This document shows positions 150 through 46,571 of a stretch of DNA of 51,974 nucleotides, piece after piece. Positions within the stretch are counted from its first letter, which is position 1; every line of letters starts with the position of its first letter. Made by a program: the position numbers and the translations under genes. The notes beneath the pieces are model-generated. The model did no database searches and had not been told where the DNA came from. It saw nothing but the letters and a program-made list of their open reading frames with translations. The stretch lies in the IMG/VR virus record IMGVR_UViG_3300046411_000715, positions 1-51,974 of that record; one strand, given 5' to 3'. This stretch comes from a virus.

Positions 150-1244
150 ATGACAGATGAAATCAGAAATGATGAGGTCGAGACTTCTACTGATGAAGTA
201 GTTAACGAAATCGTGGAAGAAACTCTCGAAGAAGCGGAAGCAATGTCAAGTGTAAAGGCAAAAGGTAGTGCTAAGGACGCCAGTCCAGTAAGCGAACCTG
301 AGTCTATTGCATCTGTAGATAAAGCGGCCGATGCGGTAAAACCTAAGCAGGCACCTGCACCGAAAACAAAAGCAGGTATGATTAGTGCGATGACTGACAA
401 AATGTTGAAAATGTCTAAATCAGACATGGAAAGCATGTATGCTAGTTATCATAAAATGAAAAAGGAAGAAGTAGAAGAAATGGAAGGTGAAGCAATTGTT
501 GAATCACCAGAAGTTGACACTATGGGAGAACTTAATGCACTAGTCGAATCCGAAGCAACTCTAAGTGATGAGTTCAAGGAAAAAACTGCAGTAATATTTG
601 AAGCGGCAGTAAAATCTAAACTATCAGAAGAAATTGATAGATTAGAATCTCAATACAAAGAAGAGTTAGAAGAAGAATTGTCTTCAACTAAATCTGAAAT
701 GGTTGAGAAAGTCGATTCATACCTTAACTATGTAGTTGAAAATTGGATGAAGGAAAATGAACTTCAAGTCGAAAACGGTCTTAGAACTGAAATCGCCGAA
801 GGGTTTATGTCTAAGTTGAAAGATTTATTTAGTGAATCTTACATCGAAGTCCCTGAGTCTAAAGTTGACCTAGTTGACGAACTTGCTGAACAAGTAGAAG
901 AACTTGAGTCTAAACTCAATGAAACTACTCAGAAAGTTATCGACCAAAGTGGTGAGTTAGAAGAAATGAAGAAAGAGGAAATTATCAGAGAATCTTCTTC
1001 TGACCTTGCTGACACACAAGTTGAGAAGTTAAAAACTTTAGTAAACGACCTTGACTTTGAAGATGCAGAGAAATTTGCAGAAAAAGTTAAAACTGTTAAA
1101 GAAGCACACTTCTCTAACGAACAAAGTGGTAGTGACGAAATTATATCCGAAGAAACTGAAGGAGAAAGTGACGAGTTAATCGAAACTAGTTCTTCAATGG
1201 ATAGATACGTTTCTACTTTAAGAAAAACTCAATCTAAAAATTAA
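150..1244 (+). CDS. 22: Prohead core scaffolding protein gp22
   Basis: Predicted major scaffold of the prohead core, which shapes the capsid and is later degraded by the gp21 protease. The 364-residue product is very acidic, with long coiled-coil stretches in the middle and C-terminal half and almost no aromatic residues. It has a Pro/Ala/Lys linker near residues 70-85 followed by a Met/Ser/Lys helix, a pattern familiar from marine T4-like gp22. It contains several L-x-E or I-x-E tripeptides suitable for gp21 cleavage. A GGGAG ribosome site precedes the ATG. It lies directly before gp23, as in T4. The assignment is firm from context and composition, since gp22 sequences diverge quickly. Confidence 0.88.
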   Translation: MTDEIRNDEVETSTDEVVNEIVEETLEEAEAMSSVKAKGSAKDASPVSEPESIASVDKAADAVKPKQAPAPKTKAGMISAMTDKMLKMSKSDMESMYASYHKMKKEEVEEMEGEAIVESPEVDTMGELNALVESEATLSDEFKEKTAVIFEAAVKSKLSEEIDRLESQYKEELEEELSSTKSEMVEKVDSYLNYVVENWMKENELQVENGLRTEIAEGFMSKLKDLFSESYIEVPESKVDLVDELAEQVEELESKLNETTQKVIDQSGELEEMKKEEIIRESSSDLADTQVEKLKTLVNDLDFEDAEKFAEKVKTVKEAHFSNEQSGSDEIISEETEGESDELIETSSSMDRYVSTLRKTQSKN

Positions 1245-1269: not shown

Positions 1270-2574
1270 ATGGAAGTACAATCTTACGACCAATTGATTG
1301 AAAAATGGAAACCAGTATTAGACGAAGAGTCTGCTGGTGAAATTAAAGACAATCACAGACGTTCCGTAACTGCCGCACTTTTGGAAAACCAAGAGAAAGC
1401 AATTGCAGAGCAAAACGAGACTATGTTATTTGAGGCCGCACCTGCTAACAATACTTCAAGTGTGTCCAATTTTGACCCAGTCTTAATCTCATTAGTTAGA
1501 CGTGCTATGCCTAACTTAATCGCATACGATGTATGTGGTGTTCAACCAATGAATGGACCAACTGGTTTAATCTTTGCTATGAAGGCAAGATATCAAGGTG
1601 GTTCAACTTCTAACAGAGAAGCATTGTTCAACGAAGCAGAAACTAGATTCTCAGGTGATTCATCTGGAACTCATGATTCTGACAACGTTTCAGGTTACAA
1701 TGGTATTGACTCAGACAACGACAGATTAACATCTCTCGCCGCTTCTGGTATGCCTACTGTTGACGCCGAAGAACTTGGTGCATCTACTGGTAGTACCTTC
1801 AATGAAATGGGTTTCACAATTGAGAAATCAACTGTAACTGCTGTTTCAAGGGCGCTAAAAGCAGAATACACTTTAGAACTTGCTCAAGACCTTAAAGCAA
1901 TTCACGGTCTAGATGCTGAAACAGAACTTGCTAACATCTTATCTACTGAAATCTTAGCAGAAATCAATAGAGAAGTTATCAGAACTATTAACTCACAAGC
2001 AAAAGACGGTGCCCAACAAGCAAACGTTACTGTTAACGGTGTGTTTAACATGTCTTCTGATGCTGATGGACGTTGGAGTGCTGAGAAGTTCAAAGGTTTA
2101 GGTGTTCAAATAGACAGAGAATGTAATCAGATAGCGAAAGACTCAAGAAGAGGAAAAGGTAATATCCTAATCTGTTCTTCTGACGTTGCAACTGCATTAG
2201 CGGCCGCTGGAACTTTGGATTACTCTCCAGGTATATCTAACAACTTAAACGTTGACGATACTGGTAATACTTTTGCTGGTCTTCTTAACGGAAGAATCAA
2301 AGTATACATCGACCCATACGCAAACACTGACTACTGTACAGTAGGTTATAAAGGTACTAACCCTTATGATGCTGGTGTTTTCTACTGCCCATACGTACCA
2401 TTGCAAATGGTTAAAGCAGTTGGGGAAGATACTTTCCAACCTAGAATTGGTTTTAAAACAAGATACGGAATGGCGTCAAACCCATTTGTAGGTTCTACAC
2501 CTGCTAACGGTCTTGCTAGTGTTAAAACTAACTTCTACTACAGAATATTCAAGGTAACTAATATCTTAACATAA
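1270..2574 (+). CDS. 23: Major capsid protein gp23
   Basis: Hexamer-forming capsid subunit with the HK97 fold (434 aa). The N-terminus has the typical marine gp23 pattern: a KWKPVLD-like segment, an AGEIKD-like segment, then a V-T-A-x-L-L-E-N-Q helix. It contains candidate gp21 cleavage sites I-A-E (45-47) and L-F-E followed by Ala (53-55), where the T4 protein is trimmed after an I-x-E site. The Gly/Asn-rich middle and the C-terminal region with GFKTRYGMASNPF are highly characteristic of gp23. An AGGAAAT ribosome site precedes the ATG. A strong terminator follows 24 bases after the stop, as expected for an abundant late transcript. Confidence 0.97.
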   Translation: MEVQSYDQLIEKWKPVLDEESAGEIKDNHRRSVTAALLENQEKAIAEQNETMLFEAAPANNTSSVSNFDPVLISLVRRAMPNLIAYDVCGVQPMNGPTGLIFAMKARYQGGSTSNREALFNEAETRFSGDSSGTHDSDNVSGYNGIDSDNDRLTSLAASGMPTVDAEELGASTGSTFNEMGFTIEKSTVTAVSRALKAEYTLELAQDLKAIHGLDAETELANILSTEILAEINREVIRTINSQAKDGAQQANVTVNGVFNMSSDADGRWSAEKFKGLGVQIDRECNQIAKDSRRGKGNILICSSDVATALAAAGTLDYSPGISNNLNVDDTGNTFAGLLNGRIKVYIDPYANTDYCTVGYKGTNPYDAGVFYCPYVPLQMVKAVGEDTFQPRIGFKTRYGMASNPFVGSTPANGLASVKTNFYYRIFKVTNILT

Positions 2575-11114: not shown

Positions 11115-12173
11115 ATGAAAATTGCTATCTTAAATGATACCCATTGCGGTATTCGTAATTCTTCTGATATATTTATGGACTATCAAGAATTATTTTATCG
11201 TGATGTATTCTTTCCCTATTTACTAGAAAACAACATTACAAGAATATTACATCTTGGTGATTACTACGATAATCGTAAAACAGTCAATTTCAAATGCTTA
11301 AATCATAATCGTAAAATATTTCTTGAGAAACTAAGAGAATATGGTATGACTATGGACATTATTCTAGGTAATCACGACACTTATTTTAAAAACACGAATG
11401 AGTTGAACTCACTAAAAGAATTACAAGGTCACTATATGAATGAAGTAAATATCATTCAAAAACCTACTGTCATGGATTATGATGGATTAAAAATAGGTCT
11501 AGTGCCATGGATTGCAGATGACAATGAAAAAGAATCACTAGAGTTTATTAACAATTGTAATGCATCTATCATTGGTGCCCACTTAGAACTAATTGGTTTT
11601 GACATGTATCGAGGTATGCCAGCACATGACGGTATGGATAGAAAATTATTTGATAGATTCGAAATGGTATTGACTGGACATTTTCATGCTAAGTCTTCTC
11701 AGGGTAACATACATTATCTAGGGGCACAAATGGAGTTCTTCTGGAATGATTGTGGCGATAAAAAATACTTTCATGTTCTTGATACTGAAACAAGAGAAAT
11801 AGAAGCAATACTAAATCCAAACACTATCTTTGAAAAAATATATTATGACCACGAAAAGATAAATGACTTTCAAGATTTAAGATATCTAGATAATAAATTT
11901 GTAAAACTAATTGTAGTCAACAAAGGTGATAGTTACAAGTTTGAAAGATTTGTTGATAGAATACAAAGTCAAAAAATACATGAACTAAAAATTGCAGAAG
12001 ACTTTTCTGAGTTTATTGGCACAAATGTAGATGACGGCGAAATAAACATTGACAATACTGAAACAGTAGTGTATAATTACATCGACTCAGTACAAACTGA
12101 TTTAGATAAAAATAGAATTAAAAGAGAAATATCATCTTTGATGACAGAGGCACAGAATCTTGAAATACAATGA
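11115..12173 (+). CDS. 47: Recombination nuclease subunit gp47 (Mre11/SbcD-like)
   Basis: The nuclease half of the gp46-gp47 complex, which resects double-strand ends for recombination-dependent replication. The calcineurin-type metallophosphatase motifs are all visible: N-D-T-H-C-G near residue 6, LHLGDYYDNR, LGNHDT, GAHLE and LTGHFHAK. The 352-aa length is typical. The ATG at 11115 is chosen because it follows a GAGGAA ribosome site and begins with the strand MKIAILNDTH. The upstream in-frame start runs through the promoter. A short gene overlaps its stop. Confidence 0.96.
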   Translation: MKIAILNDTHCGIRNSSDIFMDYQELFYRDVFFPYLLENNITRILHLGDYYDNRKTVNFKCLNHNRKIFLEKLREYGMTMDIILGNHDTYFKNTNELNSLKELQGHYMNEVNIIQKPTVMDYDGLKIGLVPWIADDNEKESLEFINNCNASIIGAHLELIGFDMYRGMPAHDGMDRKLFDRFEMVLTGHFHAKSSQGNIHYLGAQMEFFWNDCGDKKYFHVLDTETREIEAILNPNTIFEKIYYDHEKINDFQDLRYLDNKFVKLIVVNKGDSYKFERFVDRIQSQKIHELKIAEDFSEFIGTNVDDGEINIDNTETVVYNYIDSVQTDLDKNRIKREISSLMTEAQNLEIQ

Positions 12174-41382: not shown

Positions 41383-41390
41383 TATAAATA
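41383..41390 (+). promoter_or_regulatory. T4-type late promoter of the 353-aa gene
   Basis: A perfect TATAAATA with six bases before the ATG at 41397. It opens the late block of internal or structural proteins. Confidence 0.75.
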
Positions 41391-41396
41391 GTAGTT

Positions 41397-42458
41397 ATGC
41401 AACCATTACTAGAAGCAAAATTAAAAGCAGAAGATTACGAAGCGGCAATAGTTATGGGTTTTTATACTGTAACTAAAAGAGTAATGGAATCTACAGAAAA
41501 CTATGGCATTAAACAAAGTCTTTATGATAAAATAGAAAATACTCCAAGTGCCAAAAAAGCAGGTGAATTAATTGCGACAAAAATACTAAAAGATTACCCA
41601 CAACTAAAGAATAAAAAAGCAGAAGTATTTGGTAGAGCAAAATCTAATTTAACAGATTTTTGGAAATCATATGGTGGTTCAGACACTACACCAAAAACAG
41701 ATATAAAAATAGGTGATAAAAACTTTTCAGTTAAAATAGGTTTAGCACAATTAATGTCTGGTGGTAAAGCAGAATCAACTGCAACGTTTCAAGCGGCAGT
41801 CAAGAATTCTAATCCAGATTTAGTAAAAAGTCCTCAGTATAAAAAAACAACTCAAGTATTAGAAGGTTTTGTAAAGAATACATTAGCACCATCACAACTT
41901 AGACCTTTGATTAAATCTGGCACAGATAAAGTTGTTAATGCCGCGGAAAAAGCACACAAAGATTGTATGTCTGAACTTGGTAAATTATTTAATGAATCAG
42001 AGTCATTCAAAGTAGAATTTGCCAAAGAAGCAATGTCTGGTTATGAAAAGTTTGGTAAAAATAGTCCAGCATCTGCAGATTTAATGCTGGTTGCTACTGC
42101 TGACGGTGGTAAAACAGTAATTCAAGATGTTAATGACGATGCTTATTGTTTAAAAATAGCAAACGCAATGAGACTTCAAGCAAGATTTAAAACATCATCA
42201 AGAAAAATAAAAGGTGTAAAAACAGGAGAATATAATTATTGGTCAGTTGTATCTTTAATAGTAAATTCTATGTCAGAAGAATTAGAATCAGGCGAAAAAG
42301 AAATGTTGATTGAAATCAATATATTAAATAAAGTTAAATCATTTGTAAGTAAAACATGGAATAAAGTTACAAACTTTTTTAAAAAAGGTTTGAGACAACT
42401 TACATCTTTTCTTGGTGCAATACCAGATATTAGAGTAAAAAGAAATGTTAAGTTTTAA
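41397..42458 (+). CDS. Late protein, 353 aa, unknown; possible packaged protein
   Basis: The start MQPLLEAKLKA has L-L-E followed by Ala, a fit to the gp21 cleavage rule (L/I-x-E). The centre has TDIKIGDKNFSVKIGLAQLMSGGKAESTATF, where D and the K in S-V-K-I-G could form a nuclease-like D-x(n)-x-K, but other catalytic residues are unclear. A helical middle follows and a basic end (KTWNKVTNFFKKGLRQ). Leaderless late promoter. The next gene overlaps its end by 14 bases. I recognise the layout from marine myoviruses but not its role. Confidence 0.75.
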   Translation: MQPLLEAKLKAEDYEAAIVMGFYTVTKRVMESTENYGIKQSLYDKIENTPSAKKAGELIATKILKDYPQLKNKKAEVFGRAKSNLTDFWKSYGGSDTTPKTDIKIGDKNFSVKIGLAQLMSGGKAESTATFQAAVKNSNPDLVKSPQYKKTTQVLEGFVKNTLAPSQLRPLIKSGTDKVVNAAEKAHKDCMSELGKLFNESESFKVEFAKEAMSGYEKFGKNSPASADLMLVATADGGKTVIQDVNDDAYCLKIANAMRLQARFKTSSRKIKGVKTGEYNYWSVVSLIVNSMSEELESGEKEMLIEINILNKVKSFVSKTWNKVTNFFKKGLRQLTSFLGAIPDIRVKRNVKF

Positions 42459-44694
42459 TGAACACATAGCAGAAGTTGAAGAAGGTGTTAATGACCCTGC
42501 AATCTTCAAAGCAATCTTTCTTGCTGGTGGACCAGGTAGTGGTAAATCATTTATTGTTGGTAAAACAGGACTTACATCTTTAGGGTTTAAAGTTGTAAAT
42601 TCTGATACTGCATTTGAACGTGCAATGAATCAAGCAGGTATGGAAATGAACCCTGATAATATTTTTTCTGTTGGTGGTCAACAAATGAGAGGTAAAGCAA
42701 AAGAGTTGACTGCAAAACAACAAATGTTATATATGAAAGGCAGACTTGGTTTAGTTATTGATGGTACTGGACGTGATGCAGATAAAATAATTAGACAGAA
42801 TGAAAAACTAAAAGAACTAGGTTATTCTACTGCAATGATATTTGTCAATACAGACAAAGAAACTGCTTTACGTAGAAATATGGAAAGAGCAAGAAGACTA
42901 GACCCGAAAGAAGTTGCAAAGATGTGGGATAACGTTCAAAGAAATGTTGGTAAGTATCAAAGAGCATTTAAAAGTAGATTAACAATAGTTGACAACTCAG
43001 ATGGAAAAGACTATAATAAAGAAACAACTAGAGCATTTAGAATAATGAAACAATTTGCAGAGAAGAAACCTATGAATCCGATTGCACAAAAGTGGATAAA
43101 GACTCAGAAAGAAGAGACGAACCCTAGAATACCTAGAAAGAAAGGTCAACCTGCTAATTCTAAGAAACATTCTGATTTATATACAGATGAAAATCCTAGA
43201 GGTACAATACACGGATTGGGTTTCAAAGATGTTGAAACTGCACGAGCAAGTATTAAAAAGATAGAAAACTCTGGTAAAAAACATGCACATAAAATACAGG
43301 CGGCAGTTGCTATGGAACAACGTGCAAGAGAAATGGGTAAAACTGCAGAAGCGGCCATCTATCGTACATATATTAATAAGATGAAAAAGAAAACAAAAGA
43401 AATGAACAAAGAAGATTACATGGAGTATCACCCAAAGAACAATAAAAAGTATCGTAAGTTGACACCATTTCAAACAGAATCTTACAAAAGTCTTTTTCTA
43501 CCAGAAGAAAAGAATACACATATGACACATATAGAAGATAAAGTTCTGTATGGTGGAGTCAAAGGTACAAGAGAGGCAATCAATGCCTTGAGAAGTATAC
43601 GTGATATGTTAGCAGGTAAATCATCAACTAAGATGTCAGTTAAGTGGGATGGTGCACCAGCAATCTTCTGTGGTGAAGACCCAAGTGATGGTAAGTTCTT
43701 TGTTGCTAAGAAAGGTATCTTTGCTAAGAATCCGAAAGTATACAAATCAAATGCTGATATTGATGCTGATACTTCAGGAGATTTAGCAGAGAAATTAAAA
43801 CTTGCATTGAAGCATTTAAAGAATCTTGGTATTAAAGATGTCATACAAGGTGACTTCTTGTACTCAAAACAAGACTTAAGTAAAACTAAAATAGATGGTA
43901 AGCAGTATATTACATTTCACCCAAACACAATTGTCTATGCAGTAGAGGCAGGCACAGAAGCGGCCAAACGTATTACTAAGTCACAGATTGGCATAGTTTG
44001 GCATACAACATATAAAGGTAAAGACTTTGCATCGATGAAAGCATCATATGGTGTGAAAAAGATACCATCTTCTCCAGCAGTTTGGTCGCAAGATGCAGAA
44101 CTAAGTGGCGCTGGTGAGGCAACAATGAATGAAAAAGAAACTAAAGAAGTTACAAGTTATTTAAGTACTGCTGGTTTTCTATTCAATAAAGTCGCTGGTG
44201 ATACACTCAGAGAACTAGAAAAGAATCCAGAACTTGCACAATTAATCGAACAATACAACAATACTTTTGTTAGAGCAGGGCAAATGTTACCAGATAGTAA
44301 GAAACATACTGCAAGATTGATACGTTGGATAGAGAATAAGTATAAAAAAGAAATGGACAAACGTAAAACTGCAAAAGGAAAACAAACACAACAAGACAAG
44401 TTAGACACAATTTTAAAGTTCTTTTCGCCACAAAATAGAGTTTCGCTTGTTAATATGTTTGATTTACAGAAGAATATAGTTCTCGCAAAACTAAAACTTA
44501 TAAATAGATTAAACAACATTAGTAATATTGATGCATTTGTGAAAACACCGAAAGGTTATAAAACTACTGGTGCAGAAGGATATGTTGCTATTGATAAATT
44601 AGGTGGTGGCGCAGTTAAGTTAGTTGATAGATTAGAATTCTCTTACAACAACTTTTCTCCAAATATATTGAAAGGATGGGATAAACCGAGGTAA
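42445..44694 (+). CDS. P-loop kinase fused to a nucleic-acid-ligase-like domain
   Basis: A 749-aa late protein. Residues 1-12 (MLSFNEHIAEVE) resemble a T4 capsid-targeting peptide with an I-A-E cleavage site. Residues 22-200 form a P-loop kinase: Walker A GGPGSGKS (28-35), and DGTGRD with the acceptor-type Asp, as in polynucleotide or zeta-toxin kinases. Residues 235-320 form a helical HGLGF module. Residues 360-600 are ligase-like: K400-W-D-G in SVKWDGAPA (motif I), FVAKKGIFAK, and VIQGDFLY. This suggests 5'-end phosphorylation plus sealing, as T4 Pnk/Rnl do in two proteins. Substrate and packaging are inferred. Confidence 0.8.
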   Translation: MLSFNEHIAEVEEGVNDPAIFKAIFLAGGPGSGKSFIVGKTGLTSLGFKVVNSDTAFERAMNQAGMEMNPDNIFSVGGQQMRGKAKELTAKQQMLYMKGRLGLVIDGTGRDADKIIRQNEKLKELGYSTAMIFVNTDKETALRRNMERARRLDPKEVAKMWDNVQRNVGKYQRAFKSRLTIVDNSDGKDYNKETTRAFRIMKQFAEKKPMNPIAQKWIKTQKEETNPRIPRKKGQPANSKKHSDLYTDENPRGTIHGLGFKDVETARASIKKIENSGKKHAHKIQAAVAMEQRAREMGKTAEAAIYRTYINKMKKKTKEMNKEDYMEYHPKNNKKYRKLTPFQTESYKSLFLPEEKNTHMTHIEDKVLYGGVKGTREAINALRSIRDMLAGKSSTKMSVKWDGAPAIFCGEDPSDGKFFVAKKGIFAKNPKVYKSNADIDADTSGDLAEKLKLALKHLKNLGIKDVIQGDFLYSKQDLSKTKIDGKQYITFHPNTIVYAVEAGTEAAKRITKSQIGIVWHTTYKGKDFASMKASYGVKKIPSSPAVWSQDAELSGAGEATMNEKETKEVTSYLSTAGFLFNKVAGDTLRELEKNPELAQLIEQYNNTFVRAGQMLPDSKKHTARLIRWIENKYKKEMDKRKTAKGKQTQQDKLDTILKFFSPQNRVSLVNMFDLQKNIVLAKLKLINRLNNISNIDAFVKTPKGYKTTGAEGYVAIDKLGGGAVKLVDRLEFSYNNFSPNILKGWDKPR

Positions 44695-44695
44695 A

Positions 44696-45058
44696 ATGAA
44701 ATCATTTAAAGAGTTCACAACTACAGACGAAGCAATGACTGTTCAACAAAGGTTGAAAAGGTCTCGTCAATTCAAAAAAATCAAGGCAAAAATCGCAATG
44801 GGTCGAAAGAAAGCGGCCCGTAAAATAGCATCACCTGAGAAACTAAAGAAACGTGCATTGAAAAAAGCACGTCTAAAGTTCTTTAAGAAAATAACTAAAG
44901 GTCAAGCACCACAAGATATATCTCTTGCTCGAAGAAATGAGATAGAGAAAAAACTTGATAAGATGAAACCTAAGATTCAAAAGTTTGCTAGGAAGATTTT
45001 ACCACAAGTAAGGAAAGATGAATTAGCAAAGAAAAAGAAATCTAAAGAAAACAAATAA
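44696..45058 (+). CDS. Very basic late protein, possible internal head protein
   Basis: A 120-aa protein, almost half Lys/Arg, with helical repeats (RLKRSRQFKKIKAKIAMGRKK). It starts MKSFKEFTTTDEA, the same pattern as the T4 internal-protein capsid-targeting start MKTYQEFI-x-EA, though it lacks an L/I-x-E site. It begins one base after the preceding stop with GAGGT as ribosome site. A DNA-binding, capsid-packed role like T4 internal proteins fits composition and expression class. Confidence 0.78.
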   Translation: MKSFKEFTTTDEAMTVQQRLKRSRQFKKIKAKIAMGRKKAARKIASPEKLKKRALKKARLKFFKKITKGQAPQDISLARRNEIEKKLDKMKPKIQKFARKILPQVRKDELAKKKKSKENK

Positions 45059-45064
45059 TATATC

Positions 45065-46309
45065 ATGGCAATCAAAAACTTTTCACAATATTTAATTGAA
45101 GCAGAAAGAGAGGTGTTCTTCACATTTGGTAGAATGAATCCACCCACTATCGGACATGGTAAAGTTCTAGAAACGTTAGCAAAGAAATCTGGTAGAAATG
45201 ACTATAAAGTTTTTACCTCACAAGTATCTAATCCAAAGAAAGACCCACTATCTTACTCAGATAAAATAAAACATATGCGAAAAATGTTTCCAAAACATGG
45301 CAGAAGTATCATTATTAATAAAAAGATAAGAACTGCCTTTGATGCGGTGACAGAACTATATGACCAAGGATATCGTAAAGTAAATATGATTGTTGGTTCT
45401 GATAGAGTTAGAGAGTTTGATACACTATTGAAAAAGTACAATGGTGTAAAAGGTAGACATGGTTTCTATAACTTTGAGTCAATCAATGTGTTATCTGCAG
45501 GTGAACGTGACCCAGATGCTGAAGGAGTTGCTGGTATGTCTGCATCAAAACAAAGAGCAAATGCTCAAGAAAATGATTATACTGCATTCTCTCAAGGTGT
45601 ACCAAAGAATATGAATGATAAAGATACTCGTAAGTTATTTAACGATGTTCGTAAAGGTATGGGACTTAAAGAAGAGAAAAAGTTCAAACGTCATGTTGAC
45701 CTTGGTAAATTAAACGAACTTCGAGAAAACTATGTCAAAGGTAGTCTTTATGAAATAGGCGATACTGTTGTTATCAAAGAATCAGAAGAAGTTGGTATTA
45801 TTACAGTATTAGGTTCTAATTATGTTATTATTGAAACAAATGATAAGAAAAAAGTACGTAAATGGTTAGATGCGATAGAACTTGTTGAAAAGAAACTAAC
45901 ACCAGCAGAACTTAAGAAAAGAGAAGAGATTGCTAAAGCAATAGAAAAAGATAACCCTAAAATGCCTATGGATAAGAAAATGGCAATTGCTACTGCTACT
46001 GCTAAACGTGTTGCAGAAAAGATTGTCGATGATGTTTCTACTATCATAGAAAAAGAAAAAGAAAAGGCAAGAGTTGCTCAAGATAAAGATGTCAAAGACA
46101 AGAAAGGTTCGCAACCATCTGTTTACTATAAAGGCGTAGCAAAGAAAACAAAAAGTTCTAGAGCATCACATTTTGCTAAACATGGTAAGATGGACGATGA
46201 TAATCCAGCGGCATACAAAGATGCACCTGGGGATAAAAAAGCAAGAAAGAAAGGAACGAAACTTAGTAAACACACAAAATCATACAGACAAATGTTTGGA
46301 GATGACTAA
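45065..46309 (+). CDS. HIGH-type nucleotidyltransferase with KOW-like domain, possibly packaged
   Basis: A 414-aa late protein. MAIKNFSQYLIEAE resembles a capsid-targeting start with L-I-E cleavage before Ala. The catalytic domain (about 15-190) has FTFGRMNPPTIGHGKVL (T-x-G-H in place of H-x-G-H), MIVGSDRVREF, and a GMSASKQR that fits the I-S-x-T-x-x-R motif of NadM/cytidylyltransferase-type enzymes. A small KOW-like barrel (GDTVVIKESEEVGIITVL) follows and the C-terminus is basic. It may act on nucleotides or NAD precursors soon after infection if packaged. Substrate unknown. Confidence 0.8.
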   Translation: MAIKNFSQYLIEAEREVFFTFGRMNPPTIGHGKVLETLAKKSGRNDYKVFTSQVSNPKKDPLSYSDKIKHMRKMFPKHGRSIIINKKIRTAFDAVTELYDQGYRKVNMIVGSDRVREFDTLLKKYNGVKGRHGFYNFESINVLSAGERDPDAEGVAGMSASKQRANAQENDYTAFSQGVPKNMNDKDTRKLFNDVRKGMGLKEEKKFKRHVDLGKLNELRENYVKGSLYEIGDTVVIKESEEVGIITVLGSNYVIIETNDKKKVRKWLDAIELVEKKLTPAELKKREEIAKAIEKDNPKMPMDKKMAIATATAKRVAEKIVDDVSTIIEKEKEKARVAQDKDVKDKKGSQPSVYYKGVAKKTKSSRASHFAKHGKMDDDNPAAYKDAPGDKKARKKGTKLSKHTKSYRQMFGDD

Positions 46310-46325: not shown

Positions 46326-46571
46326 ATGATATCTTTTAAAGAATATGCAGAAATAGAAGAAAGTTCGACTAAAGGTCTTCAAAACAAGGCATCAAAGTCT
46401 GGATTTGCATATAAAACTTTAAAAAAAGTATTCGATAGAGGTGTTGCCGCATGGAGAACTGGTCACAGACCAGGGACAACTCCAGCACAATGGGGTATGG
46501 CGAGAGTTAATGCCTTTATTACTAAGAAAAAGAAAGGTATTAAATTAAATCACGACCAAGATTTAGGTTAG
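46326..46571 (+). CDS. DUF5824-like small late protein, 81 aa
   Basis: The product starts MISFKEYAEIEES, again like a capsid-targeting peptide (I-E-E). The rest follows a pattern common in marine myoviruses: GLQNKASKSGFAYKTLKKVF and RGVAAWRTGHRPGTTPAQWG. I associate this with DUF5824, function unknown. The start at 46326 is fixed by the late box five bases upstream. The longer frame from 46173 would run through the end of the previous gene. It may be a packaged protein. Confidence 0.8.
   Translation: MISFKEYAEIEESSTKGLQNKASKSGFAYKTLKKVFDRGVAAWRTGHRPGTTPAQWGMARVNAFITKKKKGIKLNHDQDLG

What the first reader, a model, noticed from the sequence alone, without database searches (positions are those of the whole stretch)
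45065..46309. Late nucleotidyltransferase with a capsid-targeting-like start
Seen: T-I-G-H and S-A-S-K-Q-R motifs of the NadM/cytidylyltransferase superfamily in a late gene, with L-I-E cleavage near residue 12 and a KOW-like appendage. Such enzymes are usually metabolic and early. Late expression with a packaging signal suggests action at the start of the next infection, for example on NAD, which many defence systems deplete.
Basis: partly seen in the sequence, partly recalled or inferred. Interest (0 to 1): 0.55.

Follow-up and report, generated by a model that had tools for sequence, protein, structure and literature searches.

The report
Phage enzyme with head-packaging tag
A marine T4-like virus of bacteria makes a nucleotide-joining enzyme whose first dozen residues match the tag that loads proteins into the T4 head, so the enzyme is probably carried in the particle and released into the next cell, perhaps with neighbouring proteins that bear a similar tag.

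Summary
The 414-aa ORF at 45065-46309 has TIGH, SASKQR, a KOW-like barrel and the start MAIKNFSQYLIEA. F6, Y9, L10 and E12 match, in residue type and spacing, the four positions that matter in the T4 IPIII capsid-targeting sequence. The leader is in 80 of 82 metagenomic homologues (a clade-biased set) and 6 of 12 named phages. Three leader-bearing homologues (S-SCSM1, S-CREM2, S-SZBM1) were found in virions by published mass spectrometry; a fourth (S-CREM1) was not reported in a thin proteome. In those three genomes the T4-derived motif hits 8 of 719 CDS, 5 of them virion proteins. In relatives the leader also starts many other genes of the same operon (kinase, RNA-ligase-like DUF6267, phosphatase-like), often headed by TATAAATA. 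Late expression and packaging are thus well supported by inference. Substrate is open: the fold fits NMN/NaMN and phosphopantetheine adenylyltransferases about equally, NMNAT models fail their cut-offs, and no NadV was found (0 of 15). Virion-carried NMNAT-like proteins and the NAD idea are already in print for cyanophages; my searches found no paper on the leader in marine phages.

The parts
45065..46309 (+). HxGH-type nucleotidyltransferase gene, 414 aa, with leader, KOW-like barrel and basic C-terminal tail
45065..45100 (+). Capsid-targeting-like leader, residues 1-12 MAIKNFSQYLIE (F6, Y9, L10, E12); predicted head-protease cut after residue 12
   Evidence: T4 rule; conservation (F6 and E12 at 90% or more in 45 sequences); cleavage itself inferred
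45146..45157 (+). TIGH (HxGH-type) catalytic motif, residues 28-31
   Evidence: T28, G30, H31 invariant in 45 homologues
45539..45556 (+). SASKQR (S-x-S/T-x-x-R type) motif, residues 159-164
   Evidence: S159, K162, R164 invariant in 45 homologues
45749..45892 (+). KOW/SH3-like barrel, residues about 229-276; a separate gene beside the enzyme in S-RSM4 and ACG-2014j
41383..41390 (+). TATAAATA, T4-type late promoter sequence, first T 14 bp before the start of the first operon gene
   Evidence: relatives
41397..42458 (+). First gene of the operon; no leader match here, leader present in a relative (L015 MQKFDNFITEA); a nuclease-like D...K pattern noted by eye only
42445..44694 (+). P-loop kinase + DUF6267 (RNA-ligase-like: KWDG, EGYV, KLVDR); leader MLSFNEHIAE matches only if His is allowed as the second aromatic
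44696..45058 (+). Lysine-rich 120-aa protein with imperfect leader (MKSFKEFTTTDEA), no motif match
46326..46571 (+). DUF5824 protein with leader-like start (MISFKEYAEIEE) that fails the strict motif
150..1244 (+). Head scaffolding protein gene (the kind of core protein with which T4 internal proteins interact)
   Evidence: phrog_237
1270..2574 (+). Major head protein gene, placing the window in a T4-like phage
   Evidence: phrog_138

Best explanation
The gene encodes a virion cargo enzyme of a T4-like marine myophage. It is transcribed late, in an operon of which several genes are similarly tagged in relatives. Its first 12 residues act as a T4-type capsid-targeting sequence that carries it into the prohead core; the gp21-type head protease then cuts after LIE, freeing the enzyme inside the head; it leaves with the DNA and acts in the next cell before phage genes are expressed. 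The enzyme is an HxGH-family nucleotidyltransferase, most likely an adenylyltransferase. Shown here: the leader, its conservation, motif conservation, the predicted fold, promoter context; published by others: virion detection of three leader-bearing homologues. Inferred: late transcription, cleavage, ejection, early action. Open: the substrate (NMN/NaMN is my first guess, about 35%, then an unknown acceptor linked to the neighbouring ligase/kinase).
For: T4 IPIII: 10 residues suffice, positions 4 and 7 target, 8 and 10 govern processing (PMC9026906, passages); same residue types and spacing here. 80 of 82 metagenomic homologues carry it; 6 of 12 named phages. Virion-detected homologues begin MKSFLQFLKEA (S-SCSM1), MKNFSSFLTEA (S-CREM2), MRFRQFIIEA (S-SZBM1) (MS). 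Genome-wide: 8 hits of 719 CDS, 5 of them among 129 virion proteins, Fisher p 0.006. In S-CREM2 all 3 hits of 219 are virion proteins: SAM hydrolase, APH-like kinase and this enzyme. Contrast: DUF6267 in these three phages has no leader and is not among the detected proteins (with 28, 32, 40). In metagenomic loci plus window, distinct ORFs with the motif: 223 of 1375 on the + strand, 3 of 1219 on the - strand. TATAAATA before 34 of 69 other leader genes against 50 of 794 leaderless ORFs (sequences are related, so the p of 2e-19 is overstated). Protease PF03420 in 10 of 15 records, including all 7 complete phages searched.
Against: No MS was seen for this phage or its nearest relatives; the S-SCSM1 and S-CREM2 authors say co-purification is possible. 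S-CREM1 has a homologue with a textbook leader (MKRYTNFLSEA), but its 14-protein virion proteome is described as 4 structural, 9 of unknown function and 1 unmatched, so the enzyme is not reported there (PMC9964418, passages). Peptide counts are low (3 in S-CREM2, 2 in S-SZBM1). 3 of 8 motif hits were not detected in virions, and among proteins of 100 aa or more p is only 0.041. Four neighbours of the enzyme in S-SCSM1 are virion proteins without the motif, so virion presence does not need it. The motif is narrow: it matches T4 ipIII but not ipI or Alt, and none of 102 other T4 CDS scanned. The enzyme lacks the leader in S-RSM4, ACG-2014j, Cassandra and GAP32, and has a degenerate or absent one in Melnitz-3 and HTVC008M. 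No TATAAATA lies directly before the enzyme gene (0 of 79). The head protease is not on this fragment.
Confidence: 0.75

Rival explanations
1. Packaged NAD enzyme: it is an NMN/NaMN adenylyltransferase that rebuilds or sustains NAD at the start of infection, when defence systems may deplete it.
For: Foldseek's best matches are NadD and archaeal NMNAT; weak TIGR00482/TIGR01526 matches in the window protein and relatives; published proposal for relatives; final Arg of the SxS/TxxR motif invariant in 45.
Against: VIA-align puts phosphopantetheine adenylyltransferase (Z 13.7) about level with NadD/NMNAT (12.8-12.7); NCBIfam scores far below cut-off (14.5 vs 112.45 bits); no NadV in 15 records, whereas a survey reports that every NadM phage has it (PMC9503650, passages); no Nudix or NadR kinase domain was matched on the enzyme.
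Confidence: 0.35
2. Packaged nucleic-acid repair or attack kit: the enzyme works with the tagged kinase, RNA-ligase-like DUF6267 and phosphatase-like protein on RNA or DNA ends in the new host.
For: PHROG_455 spans DUF6267 and this enzyme, and the kinase is fused to DUF6267 here; the top six VIA matches of the DUF6267 model are RNA ligases (Z 7.8-6.6); a leader-bearing HAD protein matches PHROG 'polynucleotide kinase'; KOW domains often bind RNA (recalled).
Against: I know of no HxGH enzyme acting on nucleic-acid ends; DUF6267 Z is under 8 and unrelated Hsp70 rows reach 6.5; DUF6267 is not in the MS lists of the three phages.
Confidence: 0.25
3. Co-purifying abundant late protein: the leader is a scaffold-binding or expression feature and the enzyme acts only in the producing cell.
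For: Caveat stated by both MS papers; not reported in S-CREM1 virions; leaderless family members exist.
Against: The leader recurs on unrelated proteins, follows the T4 targeting rule, and in S-CREM2 picks out only virion proteins.
Confidence: 0.17
4. Core-assembly role: the tagged proteins are prohead core building blocks like T4 gp67/gp68 rather than delivered enzymes.
For: T4 core proteins gp22 and gp67 are cleaved in head maturation.
Against: Catalytic-motif residues are invariant over 45 homologues, unlikely for a filler; tagged families differ between relatives.
Confidence: 0.08

Closest known systems
T4 internal proteins IPI-III and Alt (capsid-targeting sequences)
   Same: IPIII leader rule, N-terminal position and predicted head-protease cut; enzyme cargo exists (Alt)
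   Different: Cargo here is an HxGH nucleotidyltransferase, beside kinase, ligase-like and other genes; packaging not shown by experiment for this phage; the strict motif misses IPI and Alt themselves
Virion-associated NMNAT-like/cytidylyltransferase of cyanophages S-SCSM1, S-CREM2, S-SZBM1
   Same: Homologous (41% identity over residues 20-274 to S-SCSM1), same leader type, detected in virions
   Different: Host of this phage unknown; in this clade DUF6267 and other neighbours carry the leader too. S-CBWM1's 'NMNAT', cited with these, is not a detectable sequence homologue (E 4.9)
Phage NAD-salvage enzymes NadM, NadR, NadV and NARP1
   Same: HxGH fold shared with NadM and NadR
   Different: No Nudix or kinase domain found on the enzyme, no NadV found, substrate unknown

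Membership tests
T4-type capsid-targeting sequence | Aromatic residues three apart near the N-terminus (T4 IPIII positions 4 and 7) | tested here: met
   F6 and Y9; rule
T4-type capsid-targeting sequence | Aliphatic, x, Glu (T4 IPIII positions 8 and 10) as protease site | tested here: met
   L10 and E12; E12 at 90% or more
T4-type capsid-targeting sequence | gp21-type head protease in the phage | tested here: inconclusive
   Not on this 52-kb fragment; present in 10 of 15 records incl. all 7 complete relatives searched
T4-type capsid-targeting sequence | Directs cargo into the head and is cut there | not testable with these tools
   Only published MS of three homologues; a fourth not reported
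HxGH nucleotidyltransferase superfamily | (T/H)xGH and SxS/TxxR-type motifs on the superfamily fold | tested here: met
   Pfam PF01467 21.8 vs cut-off 21
NMN/NaMN adenylyltransferase (NadD, NadM, NadR) | Passes family-specific models | tested here: not met
   TIGR00482 14.5 bits vs 112.45 for the window protein, 25.3 at best in a relative
NMN/NaMN adenylyltransferase (NadD, NadM, NadR) | Fold closest to NMN/NaMN enzymes | tested here: inconclusive
   Foldseek ranks them first; VIA-align level with phosphopantetheine adenylyltransferases
NMN/NaMN adenylyltransferase (NadD, NadM, NadR) | NMN or NaMN activity | not testable with these tools
   needs an assay
Phage NAD-salvage pathway | Partner NadV present | tested here: not met
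   PF04095 0 of 15 records, 7 of them complete phages, the rest fragments
T4-type late operon | TATAAATA before the operon | tested here: met
   41383-41390 here; 37 of 53 loci have one before an ORF within 3.5 kb upstream of the enzyme, no chance level computed. The window as a whole has 13 sites against 7.9 expected (4 of 100 shuffles reach 13)

The most novel reading that the evidence does not exclude
Marine T4-like phages carry a pre-loaded enzyme kit: a late operon in which unrelated genes (a variable first gene, kinase, RNA-ligase-like DUF6267, this adenylyltransferase, DUF5824, phosphatase-like) have each acquired the same short head-targeting tag, so that a whole reaction pathway is injected with the DNA. 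The tag can be read from sequence and predicts injected proteins in hundreds of uncultured phages, and in S-CREM2 explains a virion SAM hydrolase, a kinase and perhaps a Cas9-like protein.
Probability: 0.5. Interest if true: 0.8.

Novelty: new variant of a known kind. Interest (0 to 1): 0.62.

Why it matters
Proteins injected at time zero can disarm the host before transcription, yet outside T4 and some giant phages they are hard to predict. A readable targeting tag on unrelated enzymes would let injected cargo be listed from metagenomes and tested by proteomics, and offers a mechanism for published but unexplained enzymes in cyanophage virions.

Tried and rejected
Sequence search of solved structures found no nucleotidyltransferase, so fold comparison was used. 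A DUF6267 profile search gave no ligase, and Foldseek gave it no match at E 0.001 or better. A first, looser leader regex was dropped as post hoc and replaced by the motif derived from T4 mutagenesis (against 69, 115, 120); the looser one hit 75 of 82 homologues, 193 of 980 neighbouring ORFs, 5 of 282 S-SCSM1 CDS (2 virion), 4 of 51 window genes including the major head protein, and 2 of 102 T4 CDS, neither an internal protein. S-CBWM1's virion NMNAT was checked and is not a detectable homologue. PADLOC gave one weak match only (Cas8a, E 0.0085). TATAAATA over the whole window is mildly enriched. Paper searches for DUF6267, cytitidyltransferase and capsid targeting in marine or cyanophages listed no paper describing the leader in marine phages; only open-licence PMC papers are held. 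That the variable first genes are PD-(D/E)XK nucleases rests on patterns seen by eye; no library supported it.

Counts and drops: one search kept 83 distinct enzyme ORFs (82 with an upstream stop). Its core pattern missed at least 7 divergent ones (L090, L091, L094, L095, L103, L111, L120), which have the leader and were counted as background there; divergent ones without leader would not have been listed. The 82 come from searches seeded with this clade, the second capped at 80 loci of 592 matches. Named phages, exact motif: C48C1 (with a GTG start its annotation skips), S-SSM5, S-SCSM1, S-CREM2, S-SZBM1, S-CREM1 = 6 of 12; not in Melnitz-3, HTVC008M, S-RSM4, ACG-2014j, Cassandra, GAP32 (for most, S-CREM1 by eye from its printed start). 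For XG4 no frame was recovered. Searches allowed His as the second aromatic; searches did not; one search gives both. Virion labels for S-SCSM1 are the record's own notes: 47 by my reading, 45 in the paper.

Full report
What is there. The ORF at 45065-46309 (+) is 414 aa. It has TIGH at residues 28-31, SASKQR at 159-164, a KOW/SH3-like barrel at about 229-276 and a basic tail. The window is a 51,974-base viral record with T4-like scaffold and major head protein genes at its start. The gene is common: 531 of 50,697 phage records have a match at E 0.01, 459 of them named Synechococcus, Prochlorococcus or Cyanophage, often annotated cytidyltransferase or cytitidyltransferase.

The leader. The published T4 rule is that the first 10 residues of IPIII suffice for head targeting, with residues 4 and 7 mainly responsible and 8 and 10 for processing (PMC9026906, passages read). 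The T4 record gives MKTYQEFIAE for ipIII. In the window protein F6, Y9, L10 and E12 have the same spacing. I turned the rule into a motif, [FY]xx[FY][ILVM]xE, and applied it to other data. In metagenomic homologues 80 of 82 have it just before the catalytic core; in an alignment of 45, F6 and E12 are conserved at 90% or more although identity to the window falls to 33%. Exact matches are present in 6 of 12 named phages. In the window the strict motif hits 1 of 51 genes, this one; with His allowed also the kinase-DUF6267 gene. It is a narrow motif: in T4 it matches ipIII but not ipI or Alt, and none of 102 CDS scanned.

Test against virion proteomics. In three cyanophages with published virion mass spectrometry the homologue was detected: S-SCSM1 (PMC9602691, passages; record notes), S-CREM2 (PMC10665884, passages and the section with Table 3) and S-SZBM1 (PMC9146016, passages and Table 1). 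They begin MKSFLQFLKEA, MKNFSSFLTEA and MRFRQFIIEA. In a fourth, S-CREM1, the homologue begins MKRYTNFLSEA but is not reported among 14 detected proteins (PMC9964418, passages). Genome-wide in the first three the motif hits 3 of 219 CDS in S-CREM2 (all virion proteins: SAM hydrolase, APH-like kinase, this enzyme), 2 of 282 in S-SCSM1 (one virion) and 3 of 218 in S-SZBM1 (one virion); together 8 of 719, 5 of them among 129 virion proteins, Fisher p 0.006, or 0.041 for proteins of 100 aa or more. Chance expectation is 0.69 hits in all. The three undetected hits are proteins of 106, 105 and 165 aa. S-CREM2's Cas9-like virion protein has LRFASFMAEA near residue 17 and its gp13 starts MKDLHSFLTEQ, near-matches not counted. 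DUF6267 in the same three phages has no leader and is not among the detected proteins (with 28, 32, 40), as a targeting role predicts; but four neighbours of the enzyme in S-SCSM1 are virion proteins without the motif. The S-SCSM1 and S-CREM2 papers both warn of co-purification.

The cassette. Among distinct ORFs of 60 aa or more in the metagenomic loci and window, 223 of 1375 on the coding strand and 3 of 1219 on the other have the strict motif at a possible start. Clustering (His allowed) gave one large cluster, which I read as kinase, DUF6267, this enzyme and DUF5824 joined through fusions, and 11 smaller plus-strand clusters of two or more sequences, not all necessarily unrelated; one is an HAD protein that matches PHROG 'polynucleotide kinase'. 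Of 77 distinct DUF6267 ORFs 66 have the leader. In the window the order is the 41397 gene, kinase-DUF6267, lysine-rich protein, this enzyme, DUF5824, with an overlap of 14 or gaps of at most 16 bases. TATAAATA lies at 41383-41390. Over the loci it precedes 34 of 69 leader genes outside the three main families against 50 of 794 leaderless ORFs (related sequences, so significance is overstated), and 37 of 53 loci have one before an ORF within 3.5 kb upstream of the enzyme. It was not found directly before the enzyme gene (0 of 79), so late expression is inferred through the operon.

Fold and substrate. AlphaFold2 gave pLDDT 88.5. Foldseek's best matches are NadD, with archaeal NMNAT and NadM among the top rows. 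The VIA-align second look puts phosphopantetheine adenylyltransferase at Z 13.7 (rmsd 3.0, 150 aligned) and NadD/NMNAT at 12.8-12.7 (rmsd 3.1, 154-159 aligned), about level. NMNAT family models score far below their cut-offs. NadV was not found in 15 records, 7 of them complete phages, whereas a survey reports that every NadM phage has NadV (PMC9503650, passages). The enzyme should therefore not be filed as an NMNAT; it may still work like one.

The neighbours. DUF6267 has the motif order of the ligase superfamily (KWDG, EGxV and KxVxR, key residues invariant over 35 sequences; motif order recalled). Its model (pLDDT 88.8) has RNA and DNA ligases as most of its best matches, RNA ligases first at Z 7.8 and below, with a few Hsp70 rows at 6.5, so 'RNA-ligase-like' is likely, not proven. 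PHROG_455 spans DUF6267 and the nucleotidyltransferase, PHROG_3041 the enzyme and DUF5824. A shared task is plausible.

Verdict. Packaging and delivery at time zero: well supported by inference, about 0.75. NAD as the target: open. Virion-borne NMNAT-like proteins in cyanophages are already in print; the targeting leader on them and the tagged cassette were not found in the searches made.

Noticed in passing
window 42445-44694: DUF6267, a Pfam family of unknown function, looks like an RNA-ligase-type covalent nucleotidyltransferase and is fused here to a P-loop kinase.
   Followed up: partly
window 41397-42458 and relatives (L070, L063, L084, L094, L111): The first gene of the operon is variable between relatives; several versions show D...xxK patterns that resemble PD-(D/E)XK nucleases by eye, with no library support.
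   Followed up: partly
L132 3837-13331 (S-CREM2): SAM hydrolase and APH-like kinase of one S-CREM2 stretch match the leader; a Cas9-like protein and two small virion proteins there have near-matches.
   Followed up: partly
L140 5733-5990, L139 4540-4794, PHROG_4808: The free-standing KOW-like protein beside the enzyme is annotated 'ribonucleotide reductase alpha subunit' in ACG-2014j and PHROGs, which looks like a misannotation.
   Followed up: no
L002 11998-12063: The annotated start of the C48C1 enzyme (12064) skips the leader; an in-frame GTG lies upstream at 11998.
   Followed up: yes
L031: DUF6267 is broken by stops and the enzyme frame is cut short in this contig; intact copies exist in relatives.
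   Followed up: no
L141 26693-27352 (S-CBWM1): The virion 'NMNAT' of S-CBWM1, cited beside the T4-like ones, is not a detectable sequence homologue and shows no leader.
   Followed up: yes
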